NCBI GenBank assembly: GCA_026991135.1
Contig: JALXCD010000153.1
Coordinates: 1-34,741, forward strand
DNA from: Deltaproteobacteria bacterium
GTDB lineage: Bacteria > Desulfobacterota > Dissulfuribacteria > Dissulfuribacterales > QOAL01
Direction: 5' to 3'
Length of the DNA: 34,741 nucleotides
Below the pieces are notes generated by a model. It was not told the DNA's origin and did not search any database. It saw nothing but the letters and a program-made list of their open reading frames with translations. Shown piece by piece: positions 20,262-28,626 of the stretch (within the stretch, counting starts at the first letter, position 1; each line of letters opens with the position of its first letter). A program made the position numbers and the translations under genes.

Positions 20262-21068
20262 CTATCTTCGTGTTGCCTCTTTAAGTTTACCAACAAAGCT
20301 TGCCACTTCCTTTATCGCCTCGTCCTCTCCCTTCTCTTCATAAACCTCTGAAAACATCTTAACAATGGCGCTTCCAATGATTATTCCATCTGCAACATCC
20401 CTTAAACCCCTAACCTGTTCCGGCCTTGAGATGCCAAAACCAACTGCAACAGGCTTTTTTGTGAAGGAATGGACCCTTTCAAGCCCTTTGGAAAGCTCCG
20501 GGGGAAGCTCTGCCCTTGCCCCTGTTATTCCTAAGACAGACACATAGTAAATAAAACCAGTAGATGCCTTGACTATCCTTTTTATCCTTTCACTGGGGGT
20601 ATTGGGGGCAACAAGAAATATATTTGAAATCTCATAGGACCTTGCAACCTTCATCCAGTCAGAGGCCTCTTCAAGGGGAAGATCAGGAATGATGGTCCCA
20701 TCAATACCCGCCTCCTTGGCCCTTTTTGCAAAATCCTCAAGACCAAATTTAAGTATTGGATTGTAATAACCCATTAATACCAGAGGGCAATCGGTCTTTT
20801 TTCGAATCTCCTGGACAATTTCAAAATAAATTCCAGGATTCATCCCGCCTTTAAGGGCCCTGAAACTTGCCGCCTGAATGGTGGGACCGTCTGCAAGGGG
20901 ATCAGAGAAGGGAAGGCCAAGTTCAATTATGTCTGCCCCGTTTTCGGCCATCTCAACAACAAGCCTTTCAGTAATTTCCTTTTTGGGGTCTCCTGCTGTA
21001 ACAAAGGGGATAAGGGCTGCCTCTCCTTTTTTTCTAAGCCTTTTAAATCTCTTTTCTATCCTGTTCAT
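20262..21068 (-). CDS. trpA: Tryptophan synthase alpha chain
   Basis: TrpA cleaves indole-3-glycerol phosphate to indole and glyceraldehyde 3-phosphate within the TrpAB complex. The 268-residue TIM barrel shows PFVTAGDP, the catalytic Glu in DIIELGLPFSDPLADGP (E near 47), the catalytic Asp in AGIDGTIIPDLPLEE, YYVSVLGITGAR, and phosphate-binding VGFGISRPEQV. The ATG overlaps the trpB stop by one base (TAATG), a typical coupled junction giving equal subunits. It ends with TAG. Confidence 0.97.
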   Translation of the reverse strand: MNRIEKRFKRLRKKGEAALIPFVTAGDPKKEITERLVVEMAENGADIIELGLPFSDPLADGPTIQAASFRALKGGMNPGIYFEIVQEIRKKTDCPLVLMGYYNPILKFGLEDFAKRAKEAGIDGTIIPDLPLEEASDWMKVARSYEISNIFLVAPNTPSERIKRIVKASTGFIYYVSVLGITGARAELPPELSKGLERVHSFTKKPVAVGFGISRPEQVRGLRDVADGIIIGSAIVKMFSEVYEEKGEDEAIKEVASFVGKLKEATRR

Positions 21069-22294
21069 TACTCCTTATCCCCCTTAAAGATATCTCTAAC
21101 AGTGGCCACATCCTTATCCCCCCTTCCTGAAAGATTGACTAAAATGGTACTTCCATCCTCAAGTTCAGGAACCAACTTTTCCAAAAAGGCGATGGCATGG
21201 GCACTTTCAAGGGCAGGGATTATCCCTTCTGTTTCTGAAAGAAGCCTGAACCCCTTAAGGGCCTCTTCATCATTAATGGTATAATATTCTGCCCTTCCTG
21301 AATCCTTGTACATACTGTGCTCAGGGCCAACTCCCGGATAGTCAAGGCCTGGGGCCACAGAGTGTGCCCCCTTTATCTGGCCCCATCTATCCTGTAAAAG
21401 ATAACTCATGGTGCCGTGAAGAACCCCAGGCTCACCGCATGTAAGAGTGGCAGAATGATAATCGGTATCAATCCCCTTTCCTGCAGCCTCAACACCAATG
21501 AGCCTTACGTCTTTGTCCTTTGAAAATGGATAAAAAATGCCCATTGCGTTGCTTCCTCCGCCCACACATGCAACCACAACATCTGGGCGGGAAATGCCCT
21601 TTTTTCTAAGCTGTGCCCGAGCCTCTTTTCCTATTACACTTTGAAAGTCCCTTACCATCATGGGGTATGGATGAGGTCCCACCACCGAGCCAATGATGTA
21701 GTGGGTGGTCTCAACATTTGTAACCCAGTCTCTTATGGCCTCATTTATTGCATCCTTTAGGGTCTTTGTGCCCGAATCAACAGGAACCACCTTTGCGCCT
21801 GTAAGCTCCATGCGAAAGACATTCATGGCCTGGCGCACCGTATCCTTTCTTCCCATATAGACTATGCATTCAAGGCCCATTAAGGCTGCTGCCGTTGCAG
21901 TGGCAACTCCATGCTGGCCTGCCCCTGTCTCTGCAATGATCCTTTTTTTGCCCATCCTTTTGGCAAGAAGGATCTGGCCAATTGTGTTGTTTATCTTGTG
22001 GGCACCCGTATGTGTAAGGTCCTCCCTTTTAAGAAAGATTCTGCACCTTCCCCCAAGGGCCTCACCAAGCCTTTTTGCCTCATAAAGTGCAGTAGGCCGC
22101 CCAACATAATCCTTTAAAATCTTCTCAAACTCCCTTTTAAACTCCCTGTCCCTTTTAAATTCCTTGTAGGCGCTTTCAAGCTCCAAAAGGGCTGGCATCA
22201 AGGTTTCAGGCACAAATCTACCGCCAAAGATTCCAAAGTGCCCCCTTTTGTCCGGATTTGTCAAAAAATTTTCCTTTAACACTGCCTTCTCCAT
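21068..22294 (-). CDS. trpB: Tryptophan synthase beta chain
   Basis: TrpB condenses indole with serine using PLP. The 408 residues are the standard TrpB1 type, with [14 protein letters not shown] near the start, the PLP lysine in [24 protein letters not shown], the phosphate-binding [11 protein letters not shown], and [28 protein letters not shown]. Glycine and serine at the expected positions suggest full activity. It lies 21 bases after trpF. Serine supply could come from the serA pair elsewhere in this window. Confidence 0.97.
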
Positions 22295-22315
22295 TTTTGT
22301 AATTAAAATTGGTCC

Positions 22316-22942
22316 TTAAATGCCTTTTAGGGCCATGAAAAATTCCTCCAAAAGCCCGTGATCCTTTACTCCGGGGGCCTTTTCAACTCCAGAGCTTACA
22401 TCTACTCCGTATGGTCTAACTTTTTTTACGGCATCCCTTATATTTTCCGGATTAAGCCCCCCTGCAAGGATAACAGGCACTTCAAAACCCTTTACTATAT
22501 CCCTTGCTATTTTCCAGTTAAAGGTCTTTCCTGTGCCTCCCTTTGCATGTTTTGACCAGGTATCTAGCAATATCCCCCTTACCGAATCCTTATAAGCATG
22601 GATCTCTTCATCCCTGGCCTTATCCCTTATCCTTATTGCCTTTAAGGACCTTGGCATAAGACCCTTACAGAGCTCTGGCGACTCCTCACCATGAAGCTGA
22701 AAAAGGTCTAGGCCGCAAATCTCCCCTATTTCCTTAATATTTTCAGGCTCTTCGTCTACAAATACTCCAACGGTCTTTACCATTGGAGGAAGACGAGAAA
22801 TTATCTTTCTTGCCCTTTCTGGCTCGATAAATCTAGGGCTTTTTTTGTAAAAGATGAACCCAAGGGCATCTGCTCCAAGGATTGCTGCTGCCACTGCATC
22901 TGAAAGGCTTGTTATGCCGCAGACCTTTACCTTTACCTTCAC
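22316..22942 (-). CDS. trpF: Phosphoribosylanthranilate isomerase
   Basis: TrpF performs the Amadori isomerisation of phosphoribosylanthranilate. The 208-residue barrel has the catalytic Cys in KVCGIT (C8) and the catalytic Asp in LLDTWSKHAKGGTGKTFNW, with LAGGLNPEN and VDVSSGVEKAPGVKD forming the phosphate site. Translation starts at a GTG that overlaps the trpC stop as GTGA (22942-22939), so the two are translationally coupled but not fused, unlike in E. coli. Confidence 0.95.
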   Translation of the reverse strand: MKVKVKVCGITSLSDAVAAAILGADALGFIFYKKSPRFIEPERARKIISRLPPMVKTVGVFVDEEPENIKEIGEICGLDLFQLHGEESPELCKGLMPRSLKAIRIRDKARDEEIHAYKDSVRGILLDTWSKHAKGGTGKTFNWKIARDIVKGFEVPVILAGGLNPENIRDAVKKVRPYGVDVSSGVEKAPGVKDHGLLEEFFMALKGI

Positions 22943-23706
22943 CTAATTATAAACTCCCTAAGCTTTGATACCCTGTCCCTTTCTCTCACAAGGCTTTCGC
23001 CAATAAGGGCTGCCTGGATATGATTCTCCTTCAATCTCTTGATGTCATCTCCTGTCTTAATTCCGCTTTCGCTAACAACAGGTATTTCAGGAGGAATCAT
23101 ACTTCTTACCCTAAAGGTTGTCTCAAGGCTTACTGTAAAATCCTTAAGATTCCTGTTATTTATTCCAATAAGATCTGCCCCTGCCAAAATTGCCCTTTCT
23201 GCCTCTTTCTCATCATGGACCTCCAAAAGGCAATCCATTGAACGTTCCTTTGCATGGTCCAAAAGCTCCTTTAAAAGGATATCATCAAGGATTGCACAGA
23301 TGAGAAGTATTGCATCTGCCCCGAAAATATCTGCCTCTTCAACCTGGATATGATCAATAATAAAGTCCTTTCTTAAAAGGGGGAGTGAAACTGCATTTTT
23401 AATGACTGGGATAAATTCTATATCGCCCTTAAAAAATTCCCTATCTGTAAGGACAGAGATGGCGCTTGCACCACCCCTTTCATAGTCCTTTGAAATCCTT
23501 ACCGGGTCAAAATCCTTGCAAATAAGGCCCTTTGAAGGAGAAGCCCTCTTTACCTCAGCTATTATGGAAACCATGTCTTCCTCCAAAAGGGCATCCCTAA
23601 ATCCCCTTTTTGGCCCTGGCTCAATATCTGGCTCTTTTAACCCCTTTACCTTTAAGGAGGCCACTTCATTCCTTTTATGTTCTACTATCCTATCTAGGAT
23701 GTGCAT
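22939..23706 (-). CDS. trpC: Indole-3-glycerol phosphate synthase
   Basis: TrpC closes the indole ring from carboxyphenylamino-deoxyribulose phosphate. The 255-residue barrel shows IIAEVKRASPSKG with the catalytic Lys, LTDREFFKGD, LLRKDFIIDHIQVEEA, and IGINNRNLKDFTVSLETT with VSESGI. The ATG at 23706 lies inside the end of trpD (13-base overlap), and the stop overlaps trpF. Confidence 0.96.
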   Translation of the reverse strand: MHILDRIVEHKRNEVASLKVKGLKEPDIEPGPKRGFRDALLEEDMVSIIAEVKRASPSKGLICKDFDPVRISKDYERGGASAISVLTDREFFKGDIEFIPVIKNAVSLPLLRKDFIIDHIQVEEADIFGADAILLICAILDDILLKELLDHAKERSMDCLLEVHDEKEAERAILAGADLIGINNRNLKDFTVSLETTFRVRSMIPPEIPVVSESGIKTGDDIKRLKENHIQAALIGESLVRERDRVSKLREFIIR

Positions 23707-24731
23707 CTATTTGAAAATTCCCTTAACTCATTTAGCTTTTTTAAGGCCCTTTTTTCATCAATACTCCTTCTTGAAAGTTCAAGGGCCTCATTAAAGTCCT
23801 CTGCCCTTCCGGAAACAAGGATTGCTGCAGATGAATTTAAGAGGACCGCATCCCTTTTTGGGCCAAAATCCTTTCCCTCCAATATACCAAGGGTTATTTT
23901 GGCATTTTCTTCTGGGTCCTTACCCTTTATCTCTTCAGGTTGACAAAGAGTAAATCCATATTTTCTCGGATCAAACTCAAACTCCCTTATTTTTCCATCT
24001 ATAACCTCAGCCACAAGACTCTTTTCACATGGGCTTATCTCGTCCATTCCGTCAAGACCGTGGACCACCCAGGCCCTTTTTATGCCAAGAATGGAAAGAG
24101 CCCTTGCCAGAACACCTACAAGATCCTTGGAAAATACACCAAGGACCTGACAATTTGCCCCTGCCGGATTTGTCAAAGGTCCAAGGCAGTTAAATATAGT
24201 CCTTATGCCAAGCTCTCTCCTTGGCCCAATTACATTTTTCATGGCAGGGTGAAGATTAGGTGCAAACAAAAAACCTATGCCCACTTCCTCAATGGCCCTT
24301 TTCACATCTTCCGTTGAGAGGGAAATATTTATTCCAAGAGCCTCCAAAAGGTCAGCACTTCCAGAGCGGCTTGACACTGACCTGTTACCATGCTTTGCCA
24401 CCTTTATCCCAGCCCCTGCCACCACAAAGGCAGAGGTTGTTGATATGTTAAAGGTATTTGCCCCGTCCCCCCCTGTTCCGCAGGTATCGACAAGGGGCTC
24501 TCCTTCTGAAAGCCTCGGCTTTATCCTTATGGCCTTATCCCTCATGACCCTTGCGGCCTGGCCTATCTCCTGGGGAGTCTCTCCCTTCATCCTCAATCCC
24601 ACCAAAAGGGCGCCTATCTGGGCCTGGGTGGCCTTACCCTCCATAATGGCGTACATGACATCTGCCATCATGGAAAAAGAAAGATCCTGCCCCTTAACAA
24701 GCTGCCCTATTGCCTCTTTTAAGATGTCCAC
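23694..24731 (-). CDS. trpD: Anthranilate phosphoribosyltransferase
   Basis: TrpD transfers phosphoribose from PRPP to anthranilate. The 345 residues include the PRPP loop DTCGTGGDGANTFNIST, KHGNRSVSSRSGSAD, and the magnesium-site residues in HGLDGMDEIS. Translation starts at GTG 24731, 8 bases after GGAGG; this start gives the normal family N-terminus. It lies 3 bases after trpG, as a separate gene and not fused to it. Confidence 0.96.
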   Translation of the reverse strand: MDILKEAIGQLVKGQDLSFSMMADVMYAIMEGKATQAQIGALLVGLRMKGETPQEIGQAARVMRDKAIRIKPRLSEGEPLVDTCGTGGDGANTFNISTTSAFVVAGAGIKVAKHGNRSVSSRSGSADLLEALGINISLSTEDVKRAIEEVGIGFLFAPNLHPAMKNVIGPRRELGIRTIFNCLGPLTNPAGANCQVLGVFSKDLVGVLARALSILGIKRAWVVHGLDGMDEISPCEKSLVAEVIDGKIREFEFDPRKYGFTLCQPEEIKGKDPEENAKITLGILEGKDFGPKRDAVLLNSSAAILVSGRAEDFNEALELSRRSIDEKRALKKLNELREFSNRCTS

Positions 24732-24734
24732 TTT

Positions 24735-25298
24735 TTATGCCTCCAAAAAATTCCTAAGTAGCCTCTTTCCCTCTGGAGTAAGGATAGATTCAGGGTGAAA
24801 CTGAACCCCTTCAACAAAAAATTCCTTGTGCCTAATACCCATTAGCTCATCCTTTTCAGACCAGGAAGTTGCATAAAGGCAGTCGGGAAGGCTTTTTTCA
24901 TCGACTATTAGGCTGTGATATCTCATGGCCTCAAAGGGATTTGAAAGCCCTTTAAAGACCCCCTTTCCATCGTGCCTTATCATGGATGTCTTTCCATGCA
25001 TGAGCCTTTTGGCACGAACAACCTTGGCCCCAAAGGCATAGCCAATGGATTGATGCCCAAGGCAAACTCCAAGAATTGGTATCTTTCCGGAAAATGCCCT
25101 TATTGCCTCAACACTTATTCCAGCTTCCTTTGGGGTGCATGGCCCTGGAGAGATGAGAAGGTGGCTGGGTGAAAGCCTTTTTATCTCCTCTGTTGTAACC
25201 TCATCATTTCTAAAGACCTTAAGCTTTGCCCCAAGCTCTCCAAGGACCTGGACCAGGTTGTATGTAAATGAATCGTAGTTATCGATTAGGACTATCAT
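24735..25298 (-). CDS. trpG: Anthranilate synthase glutamine amidotransferase subunit
   Basis: TrpG hydrolyses glutamine to feed ammonia to TrpE. The 187 residues contain the class I amidotransferase triad: nucleophile Cys in [16 protein letters not shown], and the His/Glu of [13 protein letters not shown], plus the TrpG-typical [11 protein letters not shown]. The frame is open 14 codons upstream to 25340 within trpE. I chose ATG 25298 because [15 protein letters not shown] is the canonical start and AGGG precedes it. It might also act in folate synthesis as PabA, as in some bacteria with a single copy. Confidence 0.94.
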
Positions 25299-25314
25299 CT
25301 TTTTTCCCTGTTTC

Positions 25315-26790
25315 TTAAGTCTGGCTTTGGACCTCTTCAATTGCCCTCATAAGGGCCTTGCCCTTATTTATTGTCTCCTGCCACTCATTTTCAGGCACTG
25401 AATCTGCAACAATTCCTGCCCCTGCTTGAAGATAGAGCCTGTCTTCCTTTTGACAAAGGGTCCTTATGGCAATGGCAAGGTCCATGCTCCCATTAAAGCC
25501 AAGGTATCCAACAGCACCTGCATAGGGCCCCCTTCGGGCATGTTCAAGCTCTTCTATTATCTCCATGGCCCTTATCTTTGGGGCACCTGAAACGGTCCCT
25601 GCAGGAAAGCAGGCCTTAAATACATCAAACATATCAAGGCCCTTTCTAAGCCTTCCTGTGACACTACTTACAATATGCATGACATGGGAATACCTTTCTA
25701 TCACCATGAATTCGTCCACCTTTACTGATCCCATCTCTGCCACTCGTCCAACATCATTTCTGCCTAGATCCACCAGCATGACATGCTCTGCCCTTTCCTT
25801 TGGATCCGAAAGAAGCTCTTTTTCAAGGACCTTGTCTTCCTCTTCTGTTTTACCCCTTGGACGCGTGCCTGCAATTGGCCTTACTTCTATTAAATCCCCT
25901 GTTAGACGAACAAGTATCTCAGGAGAGGAACCAATAAGGGTCTCATCACCAAGCCTTAAATAATAAAGATAGGGAGAGGGATTGATACGTCTTATTGCCC
26001 GGTAAAGCTCAAAGGTGGGGATATTTGACCTTCCCGAAAACCTCTGAGACAGTACCACCTGGATGATATCCCCTGCCCTTATGTACTCCTTGGCCCTTTT
26101 TACAATAGCCTTAAAGCGCTCTTTTGAAACCTCGGGCTCAAGGCGGGTAAGGCCGAAATTTTCAAGCTCAGGCTCAGGATAATCAATGCCCCTTTTTATT
26201 CTTCTTATGATATTTTCAATAAGGCCTGTGGCCTTTTCATAGGAGGCTTCAGGGGAAATATCTTTATCCTTTATGCAGTTTACAATTATTTTTAGGGACT
26301 GTTTGAGATTATCAATGCAGAGAATACATTCAGGAAACATAAAATGGGAGTCATAAAAACCAGCCGTATCTTCCAGTTCATCTGGAAGCCTTTCAATAAA
26401 TCTCACCATATCATAACCAAGATACCCAACAGCACCTCCTGAAAACCTGGGAAGCCCGGGAATATCTGCCATACGGTTTCCCTTCATGAGGGATTTTAAA
26501 AAATCAATGGGATTTTCAACTTCCCTTTGCTCTTCTCCTCGGGCATCTTTTATATAGACCCTTTTCCCACTGGTTTTTATTAGCAAAAAGGGCCTTATGC
26601 CAATGAAACTAAACCTGCCCCATCTTTCACCTCCCTCTAAGCTTTCAAGCAAAAAGGCATACGGAGAGCTGGCGACCTTGGAAAAAAGGGAAACAGGTGT
26701 GTCAAAATCGATTGGAATCTCCCGATAAACTGGGACTATATTGTAATTTTCAAAGAATTTTTTGAAGGTATTAAAATCCGGAGTAGTCAT
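25315..26790 (-). CDS. trpE: Anthranilate synthase component I
   Basis: TrpE makes anthranilate from chorismate. The 491 residues include the N-terminal [18 protein letters not shown], which carries the LLES element involved in Trp feedback, and the catalytic half with [42 protein letters not shown] and [18 protein letters not shown] lies just before the ATG. It is the first structural gene of trpEGDCFBA and is preceded, 20 bases upstream, by a terminator that is part of the attenuator described separately. The 3' end lies 16 bases from trpG. Confidence 0.97.
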
Positions 26791-26809
26791 ATATGCTCCT
26801 TAAATTTAA

Positions 26810-26841
26810 AAGGCCGTGTACAGCAAGGTGTCCACGGCCTT
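26810..26841 (-). terminator. trp attenuator terminator (3:4 hairpin)
   Basis: On the minus strand AAGGCCGTG (26841-26833) pairs perfectly with CACGGCCTT (26818-26810). The stem extends past one mismatch by three more pairs (ACA/TGT), leaving a 6-base loop. TTTTAAATTT follows, a broken but real U tract, ending just before the trpE ribosome site. The upstream arm is also used by the 2:3 antiterminator. Confidence 0.8.
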
Positions 26842-26900
26842 CTTACTCTAAAGCTAATATAGATCAGAAGGGTGGACCACTAAATTTTGAAAATGGCCAC
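26810..26900 (-). promoter_or_regulatory. trp attenuator: mutually exclusive 1:2, 2:3, 3:4 pairing
   Basis: Segment 1 GTGGCC (26900-26895) can pair with segment 2 GGTCCAC (26878-26872, one bulged T). Segment 2 CCACCCTTCT (26875-26866) can pair with segment 3 AGAAGGCCGTGG (26843-26832): CCAC with GTGG and CCTTCT with AGAAGG, with two C bulged. Segment 3 also forms the terminator with segment 4 (26818-26810). The only leader Trp codon lies inside segment 1 and the leader stop codon abuts segment 2. Stalling at Trp would free segment 2 to form the antiterminator; completion would cover segment 2 and allow termination. The logic is that of the E. coli trp attenuator. Confidence 0.78.
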
Positions 26901-26953
26901 AATCGATTTGTTAGAATAAACACATTTTTTTCAAGATTACTAAGTTCTCCCAT
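26864..26953 (-). CDS. trpL: trp leader peptide, trpL-like (29 aa, one Trp codon)
   Basis: The reading frame is ATG, 28 further codons and TGA (stop at 26866-26864). AGGACAGGA lies 6-7 bases before the ATG. The peptide contains RLWPFSKF, with the single Trp at codon 19 (26899-26897), in segment 1 of the attenuator, and ends in SGPPF within segment 2. Classical trp leaders have two or three adjacent Trp codons, so a single one is unusual and may give a weaker response; four Phe codons are also present. It starts 34 bases after the restriction-gene stop. Its function rests on the fit of frame, Trp codon and stop to the RNA segments. Confidence 0.7.
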   Translation of the reverse strand: MGELSNLEKNVFILTNRLWPFSKFSGPPF

Positions 26954-26984
26954 AAATTTTCCTGTCCTATTTTTTGAAATCTGC

Positions 26985-27013
26985 CTTTTAAACATCTATT
27001 CCAATAATTACAA
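26985..27013 (-). promoter_or_regulatory. Possible trp operon promoter inside the restriction-gene 3' end
   Basis: On the minus strand TTGTAA (27013-27008) and TAAAAG (26990-26985) are 17 bases apart, each matching about four of six consensus positions. The start would fall near 26978, shortly before the leader peptide. The -10 overlaps the stop codon of the restriction gene. No terminator separates the restriction-modification genes from trpL, so read-through could also supply transcripts. Confidence 0.35.
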
Positions 27014-27599
27014 GAGGAACGGCAGGAACACCGCGACCTTGTCTAATTACATTATATAACTTACCTTCATAATAGGCTACACCTGAACTCATTTGAGATT
27101 GAAGAGACTTCATTGGCAAAATTTCAATTCCCACATCTATCTTATCACCTACAAAAAAGGCAAGATGTTTTACAAAAAGATCATAAGCAACAAATGGATA
27201 TTTCCCAAATTGAACCTCAATGGCAACCCTTTCCTTAACAAAGTCTGTTTGATTGTAACTGAAAATGGGAGAAAAACCCATCTCTTCAATTTCTCTTTTT
27301 TGTTCATCTGGTGGTAAGGTCATTGTCTTCCGAATCAATGACACATCTTTTGTAACCCAGTAACTTACTCTGCTCTCTTCCTATTTTTTATCAGAAAGAA
27401 GCCTTTTAAAGGATTTGTTCATCTCAATAGGGCTAAAGAGTAAACGCCCCTTCATCCTTTTTTCTTTAGAAACCTTTGTCTTGCACGCATACCCATCTAC
27501 TTTATTTATTACTTCTTTTATTTCCTCCCATAATTTTGGCTTATGGACAAGAAGAAATTCCAGCCCATTTAAATGAGAATAGAATTCTACTAACCTCAC
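26988..27599 (-). pseudogene. BstYI/BglII-family restriction endonuclease, interrupted by one amber codon
   Basis: Residues 1-72 (from the GTG at 27599, sequence RLVEFYSHLNGLEF) and residues 74-203 lie in the same frame, separated by a single TAG at 27383-27381. The joined length of 203 equals that of BstYI as I recall it, and the sequence is collinear. The catalytic residues of the family (D-x8-E-x-Q) are present as D119, E128 and Q130 in TDFVKERVAIEVQFGKY. After the stop the frame reads EESRVSYWVTKD, matching BstYI where KGWKESR stands, so TAG replaces a conserved Trp (TGG to TAG). The predicted target is RGATCY. It starts 9 bases after the methyltransferase stop. Other genes here end in TAG, so recoding is unlikely. 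A sequencing error remains possible. Confidence 0.85.
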
Positions 27600-27608
27600 A
27601 ATGTATCC

Positions 27609-28550
27609 CTAATTTTCAAACAATTTTAACTGGTGAACCTTTTCATCAGCGATGTCTTCTGAAAAGATACTGATTCGATTTATCTGTTTAGGCTGATACT
27701 TTGGTTTATTCATCGGCCTAATCTTTATTGTCCCTTCCAATGTCCTTTTAATTCTATCACGTGCTATGTCTATATATTTGCCTACAATCTCTGCTCCAGC
27801 CCCTCGCCTTCCATGTATAATAGCGGCAATAATAGAGGTTCCTGTTCCTAAAAAGGGATCCAGAACCCAATCACCTTTATTGGTCATTGATAAGACCAGT
27901 CTTTCAACCAATTCCACCGGAAATTGACAAGGATGTTCAGTTTTTTCAACATGATTGCACTTCACATTAGGTATATCCCAAACATCTCCAGGATTTTTTC
28001 CCAATGGGTTACATGAATACTGCCCCTTTTTGGGCCCCTTGAAGTACTTCTTCAATGGATATTTTTGAGGGATCCTTACTGGATCAAGATTAAATAGATA
28101 ATGTTTTGTATCTCTGGTAAACCACATTATAGTCTCATATCTTCCAGAAAACCTTTTTGAGCAGTGAAGCCCATGTTCAAAATGCCAGATGATACGATTT
28201 CTCATCACTAGCCCAAGGCCCTTGAATATGGGATATAAAATTGTATCAAGTGGAATGATTGCCCCTTTATCAACATAATTTCCAACTTGCCAGCATATAC
28301 TACCTTTTTCAGATAGAACACGTACACATTCTTCTATAACCAGTGCCTGTTGACTTATATATTTGTCTATATTTATTCTCTTGTCGTATTCTTTACCAAT
28401 ATTGTAGGGAGGTGATGTAACAATTAACTGAATTGATTTTTCTGGAATATCTTTTAAAAGTTCAAGACAGTCACCATGAAAGACAACAATATTCGCATCA
28501 GTAGTAAATCGATCTGAAATGTCAATATTTTGTCCAAATAAATTTCTCAT
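27609..28550 (-). CDS. DNA methyltransferase of the BstYI-like system
   Basis: The 313-residue amino-methyltransferase has motif IV TSPPYN (45-50) ahead of the SAM-binding motif I LDPFLGTGTS (230-239), the beta-class order. TSPPY is typical of N4-cytosine enzymes, and partners of BglII-like endonucleases often modify the C of GATC-containing sites, so N4-methylcytosine in RGATCY is likely but not certain. The target region lies between the motifs and near the C-terminus. No strong ribosome site precedes ATG 28550. The gene is intact while its endonuclease partner is broken, so the enzyme would act as a solitary methylase. Codon use is more relaxed than its neighbours, consistent with acquisition by transfer. 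Confidence 0.92.
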   Translation of the reverse strand: MRNLFGQNIDISDRFTTDANIVVFHGDCLELLKDIPEKSIQLIVTSPPYNIGKEYDKRINIDKYISQQALVIEECVRVLSEKGSICWQVGNYVDKGAIIPLDTILYPIFKGLGLVMRNRIIWHFEHGLHCSKRFSGRYETIMWFTRDTKHYLFNLDPVRIPQKYPLKKYFKGPKKGQYSCNPLGKNPGDVWDIPNVKCNHVEKTEHPCQFPVELVERLVLSMTNKGDWVLDPFLGTGTSIIAAIIHGRRGAGAEIVGKYIDIARDRIKRTLEGTIKIRPMNKPKYQPKQINRISIFSEDIADEKVHQLKLFEN

Positions 28551-28626
28551 TTAAGTCGTCTAAGCTGTCTATTTGAATAAATTTTAATTATCTTACGATA
28601 AAAAAACACCCTTTTCAACAAATGAA

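What the first reader, a model, noticed from the sequence alone, without database searches (positions are those of the whole stretch)
26810..26953. Complete trp attenuator with a single-Trp-codon leader peptide
The minus strand ahead of trpE holds a 29-codon leader with a good ribosome site, a terminator 20 bases before trpE, and three mutually exclusive pairings: 1:2 (GTGGCC with GGTCCAC), 2:3 (CCACCCTTCT with AGAAGGCCGTGG) and 3:4 (AAGGCCGTG with CACGGCCTT). The sole Trp codon sits in segment 1 and the stop abuts segment 2, exactly as the enterobacterial model requires. Known attenuators use tandem Trp codons, so a working single-codon version would be unusual, and trp attenuation is not well described in this kind of organism.
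Basis: partly seen in the sequence, partly recalled or inferred. Interest (0 to 1): 0.8.

Follow-up and report, generated by a model that had tools for sequence, protein, structure and literature searches.

The report
Trp attenuator rewired by restriction-modification insertion
The stretch in front of the tryptophan genes is a real RNA switch of the classical ribosome-controlled kind, shared by many relatives that use two or three tryptophan codons; here a DNA-restriction gene pair has landed between its promoter and its leader, the first half of the leader has been replaced, and one of two tryptophan codons has been lost.

Summary
In detail: a 29-codon leader, three competing pairings and a terminator just before trpE are present at 26808-26953 (-). 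The attenuator is conserved. A model built from it finds 17 genomes in the 46-genome class, all directly upstream of trpE, with antiterminator and terminator both supported by pair conservation. Rfam's Trp_leader model does not recognise them.

The "single-Trp" feature is not the family's design. Fifteen of the 17 leaders carry two or more clustered Trp codons, and the nearest relative (96% TrpE) has RWW exactly where the window has RLW (TGG to TTG). The cause lies next door. Compared with that sister, 1668 nt holding a BstYI-like restriction-modification pair stand in place of 46 nt that held the ancestral leader's ribosome site, start and first codons. The predicted trp promoter is stranded upstream of the R-M genes, and the leader is a chimera: codons 1-14 new, 15-29 ancestral.

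Most likely it still works as ribosome-mediated transcription attenuation, with reduced sensitivity (simple kinetics: about 2.4-fold slower Trp decoding needed). A partly decayed attenuator is the main rival. New member of a known kind, with an unusual evolutionary rearrangement. No expression data exist.

The parts
26864..26953 (-). chimeric leader ORF, 29 codons, MGELSNLEKNVFILTNRLWPFSKFSGPPF*; codons 15-29 align with the sister genome, codons 1-14 do not
26897..26899 (-). the only control Trp codon (TGG, codon 19); 36 nt to the end of the stop codon, the same spacing as in 9 of the 16 relatives
26900..26902 (-). TTG (Leu) where the sister has TGG (Trp): the lost second control codon
26894..26900 (-). 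segment 1 (GTGGCCA), pairs with segment 2 (1:2, pause-type hairpin)
26866..26877 (-). segment 2 (GTCCACCCTTCT), overlaps the last codons and the first base of the stop
26830..26843 (-). segment 3 (AGAAGGCCGTGGAC), shared by antiterminator 2:3 and terminator 3:4; the most conserved part of the family
26808..26818 (-). segment 4 and U-tract (CACGGCCTTTT), completes the intrinsic terminator
25315..26790 (-). trpE, first gene of trpEGDCFBA (20262-26790)
26914..28581 (-). 1668-nt stretch absent from the sister, standing in place of 46 nt of the ancestral leader
27609..28550 (-). type II DNA methyltransferase of the inserted R-M pair
26988..27599 (-). BstYI/BglII-family restriction endonuclease gene, interrupted by an in-frame TAG at 27381-27383 (fragments 27381-27599 and 26988-27344)
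28590..28618 (-). predicted sigma70-type promoter TTGAAA-17-TAAGAT, identical in the sister where it lies directly before the leader; probably the ancestral trp promoter
   Evidence: consensus match plus conservation; not tested

Best explanation
A classical ribosome-mediated transcription attenuator of the trpEGDCFBA operon, inherited from an ancestor with tandem Trp codons, and altered by insertion of a BstYI-like R-M cassette. When charged tRNA-Trp is plentiful, the ribosome runs to the stop codon, covers segment 2, and terminator 3:4 forms before trpE. When it is scarce, the ribosome stalls at the one remaining Trp codon over segment 1, segment 2 pairs with segment 3, and RNA polymerase reads into trpE. 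The R-M cassette sits between the ancestral promoter and the leader, so the trp genes are now probably transcribed together with, and downstream of, the R-M genes, and the new sequence supplies the leader's ribosome site and start codon. Loss of the other Trp codon should leave regulation working but less sensitive. Shown: sequence parts, pairings, their conservation, the insertion, the TGG to TTG change. Inferred: transcription from the old promoter, translation of the new leader, retained regulation.
For: Model R1 hits 17 genomes of the class, each directly upstream of trpE. Antiterminator pairing 84.8% of cells against at most 54% when slid, 8 cells with changes on both sides, 0/500 shuffles reach the covariation score; terminator 96.7%, 2 pairs with double changes. 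Window 2:3 duplex -17.8 against shuffle mean -9.8, p 0.004. Fifteen of 17 leaders have clustered Trp codons, and last-Trp-to-stop is 36 nt in 10 of 17 including the window. After the junction only 5 of 124 nt differ from the sister and none lies in segments 2, 3 or 4. R-M insertion between colinear flanks of 96.5% and 94.7% identity. Competition model after Elf and Ehrenberg (PMC1183508): half read-through needs a Trp decoding rate about 2.4-fold lower with one codon than with two (RNAP rate and step number assumed).
Against: No expression, RNA or translation data. The conserved promoter candidate lies about 1.6 kb upstream of the leader. The new ribosome site and start are sequence predictions. 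The U-tract is short. The split between window and sister is too recent for strong evidence that selection has kept the single-codon form. The contig comes from a draft assembly, although both flanks match the same relative.
Confidence: 0.72

Rival explanations
1. A decaying attenuator: terminator and antiterminator remain because the insertion is recent, but the chimeric single-Trp leader no longer regulates usefully. Termination is then constitutive, or expression is set by read-through from the R-M operon.
For: Leader first half, ribosome site and start replaced; one Trp codon lost; promoter moved 1.6 kb away; the R gene next to it is already broken. The other same-genus genomes with sequence upstream of trpE lack the attenuator, so loss is tolerated.
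Against: Frame, stop position, 36-nt spacing and all paired segments are intact, and an open frame with ribosome site and start reads into the conserved part. Constitutive termination before trpE would threaten tryptophan synthesis.
Confidence: 0.2
2. A nascent-peptide sensor of free tryptophan, TnaC-like: one Trp and a Pro-Pro-Phe-stop end stall the ribosome at the stop codon when Trp is high.
For: One Trp about nine residues before GPPF*; PPF* also in G002, G013 and G011.
Against: The PPF* codons are segment 2 itself. The peptide end changes freely among relatives (PRF*, RVCSF*, CPHL*, API*, DTTT*) while RNA pairing is kept. Most relatives have tandem Trp codons.
Confidence: 0.03
3. The apparent insertion and the chimeric leader are an assembly artefact of the draft genome; the real locus resembles the sister.
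For: Draft assembly of 164 contigs; no read data available here.
Against: Both flanks are equally close to the same sister in the same order, the R-M genes occur in no other same-class genome except as a fragment, and the Trp-codon change lies 12 nt inside the conserved side. An artefact needs two precise joins.
Confidence: 0.05

Closest known systems
Enterobacterial trp attenuator (E. coli trpL; Rfam RF00513 Trp_leader)
   Same: Leader peptide with Trp codons in segment 1, stop at segment 2, exclusive pairings 1:2, 2:3, 3:4, terminator before trpE
   Different: No sequence match over the Rfam cut-off in the class; leader about twice as long as E. coli's 14 codons (from memory); one Trp codon in the window; R-M genes between promoter and leader
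Actinobacterial trp attenuators (Corynebacterium, Streptomyces; PMC1262725)
   Same: Classical type, predicted comparatively, outside the Enterobacteria
   Different: Those leaders have double or triple UGG codons (PMC1262725); the window has one
E. coli tnaC leader (nascent-peptide Trp sensor, from memory)
   Same: Single Trp in a short leader
   Different: TnaC acts through the peptide and Rho; here RNA pairing and an intrinsic terminator are conserved and the peptide end is not

Membership tests
Ribosome-mediated trp attenuator (classical type) | Short translatable leader ORF with cognate (Trp) codons upstream of a trp biosynthesis gene | tested here: met
   29-codon ORF with ribosome site, one Trp codon, trpE downstream; translation itself not tested
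Ribosome-mediated trp attenuator (classical type) | Tandem or clustered control codons (usual, not strictly required) | tested here: not met
   One Trp in the window; 15 of 17 family members have two or more. Usual but not logically required; lowers expected sensitivity (PMC1183508)
Ribosome-mediated trp attenuator (classical type) | Intrinsic terminator 3:4 ahead of the structural gene | tested here: met
   Hairpin -19.7 kcal/mol, z -5.3, TTTT; 96.7% of cells paired in 17 genomes
Ribosome-mediated trp attenuator (classical type) | Antiterminator 2:3 exclusive with 3:4, exposed by stalling at the control codon and covered by a ribosome at the stop | tested here: met
   2:3 -20.5 kcal/mol, z -4.0; covariation; position relative to Trp and stop codons
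Ribosome-mediated trp attenuator (classical type) | Read-through rises when charged tRNA-Trp falls | not testable with these tools
   Needs reporter or RNA-seq
Rfam RF00513 Trp_leader | Covariance-model score above gathering cut-off | tested here: not met
   No hit in the window; 0 of 46 genomes over cut-off, E. coli control positive
TnaC-type nascent-peptide sensor | Conserved C-terminal peptide sequence | tested here: not met
   Peptide end varies across the family

The most novel reading that the evidence does not exclude
A mobile R-M cassette captured the trp promoter and rebuilt the leader, giving a working one-codon trp attenuator whose ribosome site and start come from the cassette, with the R-M genes expressed upstream of the switch and trp genes downstream: a natural experiment in how few control codons an attenuator needs.
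Probability: 0.4. Interest if true: 0.6.

Novelty: new member of a known kind. Interest (0 to 1): 0.42.

Why it matters
It extends classical trp attenuation, with comparative support, to an uncultured Desulfobacterota-like lineage where Rfam's model sees nothing. It also gives a matched natural pair (sister RWW, window RLW, terminator and antiterminator segments 2-4 identical) for measuring what the number of control codons does, a quantity that kinetic theory says sets sensitivity (PMC1183508). The insertion shows that an attenuator can be cut at its leader start and re-supplied with a new one.

Tried and rejected
Rfam scan of the window: nothing at gathering; the permissive scan gave only chance-level hits. 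A TGGTGG pattern search of genomes was uninformative. Horizontal transfer of the trp operon from a neighbouring genus was considered because TrpE is 76-78% identical to genus g3 against 70-75% for full-length matches within its own genus (sister apart), but a neighbouring gene (76-77% own genus, 74-75% g3) and TrpD show no clear contrast, so it is left open. A 9-nt direct repeat AAAATTTAT near both insertion borders could be a target duplication but is about what chance gives in AT-rich DNA. The TnaC-like reading was rejected on the variable peptide end. The combined p of the 2:3 test is overstated because the sequences are related.

Full report
Observation. The minus strand ahead of trpE holds the leader ORF 26953-26864, MGELSNLEKNVFILTNRLWPFSKFSGPPF*, with AGGA 6 nt before its ATG. 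The three pairings exist. Folded alone, 1:2 gives -9.8, 2:3 gives -20.5 (z -4.0) and 3:4 gives -19.7 kcal/mol (z -5.3). The terminator ends at 26808, 17 nt before trpE. The downstream genes are trpE, trpG, trpD, trpC, trpF, trpB and trpA.

Relatives. The window lies in a 2.3-Mb draft genome whose nearest named relatives are metagenome assemblies titled Deltaproteobacteria. The exact class is not named by the tools. Upstream regions of trpE in relatives show the same architecture. A covariance model built from nine of them finds 17 of the 46 genomes in the class at E up to 0.01, and each has a hit directly upstream of trpE. Rfam RF00513 is over its cut-off in none of the 46, while its E. coli control is positive. 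The terminator core AAGGCCGTG/CACGGCCTT and the antiterminator GTCCAC..CCTTCT/AGAAGG..GTGGAC are kept in 96.7% and 84.8% of cells. Several compensating changes occur, and sliding the partner by 1-3 columns lowers pairing strongly. The sequences are related and some pairs never vary, so the counts are support, not a probability.

Control codons. Of the 17 leaders, 12 have adjacent Trp codons (WW or WWW), three have WxW or WxxW, and two have a single Trp: the window and G017 (WRSMDTTT*). The last Trp codon to the end of the stop is 36 nt in 10 of 17, including the window. Stalling at the window's Trp would therefore leave segment 2 free, and a ribosome at the stop would cover it; this is inference from ribosome size.

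What happened here. The sister genome (L003/L019, TrpE 96%) has leader MYKTDSCNYTSIINRWWLFSKFSGPPF* directly after a TTGAAA-17-TAAGAT promoter-like sequence. Aligned to the window, sister 1-2831 matches window 31412-28582 at 96.5% and sister 2878-7473 matches window 26913-22320 at 94.7%. Between them the sister has 46 nt and the window 1668 nt. The extra DNA encodes a type II methyltransferase and a BstYI-family endonuclease (186 bits to 1sdo) broken by an in-frame TAG at 27381-27383. Within the class only a fragment of the methyltransferase gene is seen elsewhere (G033), so the pair was probably acquired. The 46 nt held the sister's ribosome site, start and first leader codons. In the window those functions come from the new sequence, so the leader is a chimera. 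Twelve nt inside the conserved side, sister TGG TGG CTA reads TTG TGG CCA. The single Trp is thus derived from a tandem state, not a family design. Because the sister and most relatives have the undivided arrangement, insertion in the window's lineage is the simplest order of events.

How it works now. Termination and antitermination segments are unchanged from the sister (5 differences in 124 nt, none in segments 2-4), so I take retained attenuation as most likely. In a two-process competition model after Elf and Ehrenberg (PMC1183508), one control codon instead of two lowers the Trp-decoding rate for half read-through about 2.4-fold over all parameter sets tried. The absolute numbers depend on assumed rates. 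The trp genes are probably now the distal part of an R-M plus trp transcript: no terminator-like site was found between them on this strand. An in-frame ATG overlapping the endonuclease stop (26995) would allow translational coupling. These steps are untested.

Loss is tolerated in this genus. The other same-genus genomes with sequence upstream of trpE (G001, G003, G006, G007, G008) lack the attenuator and share a CATTGAA...CATATTATTA element instead. This is the main reason to keep the decay rival at 0.2.

Literature. In the open-access library no paper described trp attenuation in Deltaproteobacteria or Desulfo- genera. Actinobacterial trp leaders have double or triple UGG (PMC1262725). Absence from this library is weak evidence.

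Noticed in passing
L152, L153, L154: Elsewhere in the phylum the same kind of attenuator (Trp-rich leader plus CCGTGG terminator) precedes a TrpB-like gene (G178, G204) and a gene whose start resembles indolepyruvate:ferredoxin oxidoreductase alpha (G260, leader ...MGRKQWTFWGWWWWNNQGGEVCP*). Gene names are from reading the start of the translation, not a family search.
   Followed up: partly
L005-L009, upstream of trpE: Same-genus genomes without the attenuator share a conserved CATTGAA...CATATTATTA element before trpE, perhaps a promoter or operator.
   Followed up: no
27381-27383: BstYI-like endonuclease gene has an in-frame TAG between two well-matched halves: probably a broken gene beside an intact methyltransferase.
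   Followed up: partly
L016 (G017), upstream of trpE: A second, apparently independent single-Trp leader (WRSMDTTT*) with weaker antiterminator pairing (p 0.37).
   Followed up: partly
L024, L026, L033, upstream of trpE: WWW-type leaders with similar terminators in assemblies titled Desulfobacterales or Deltaproteobacteria, suggesting that trp attenuation is wider in the phylum.
   Followed up: partly
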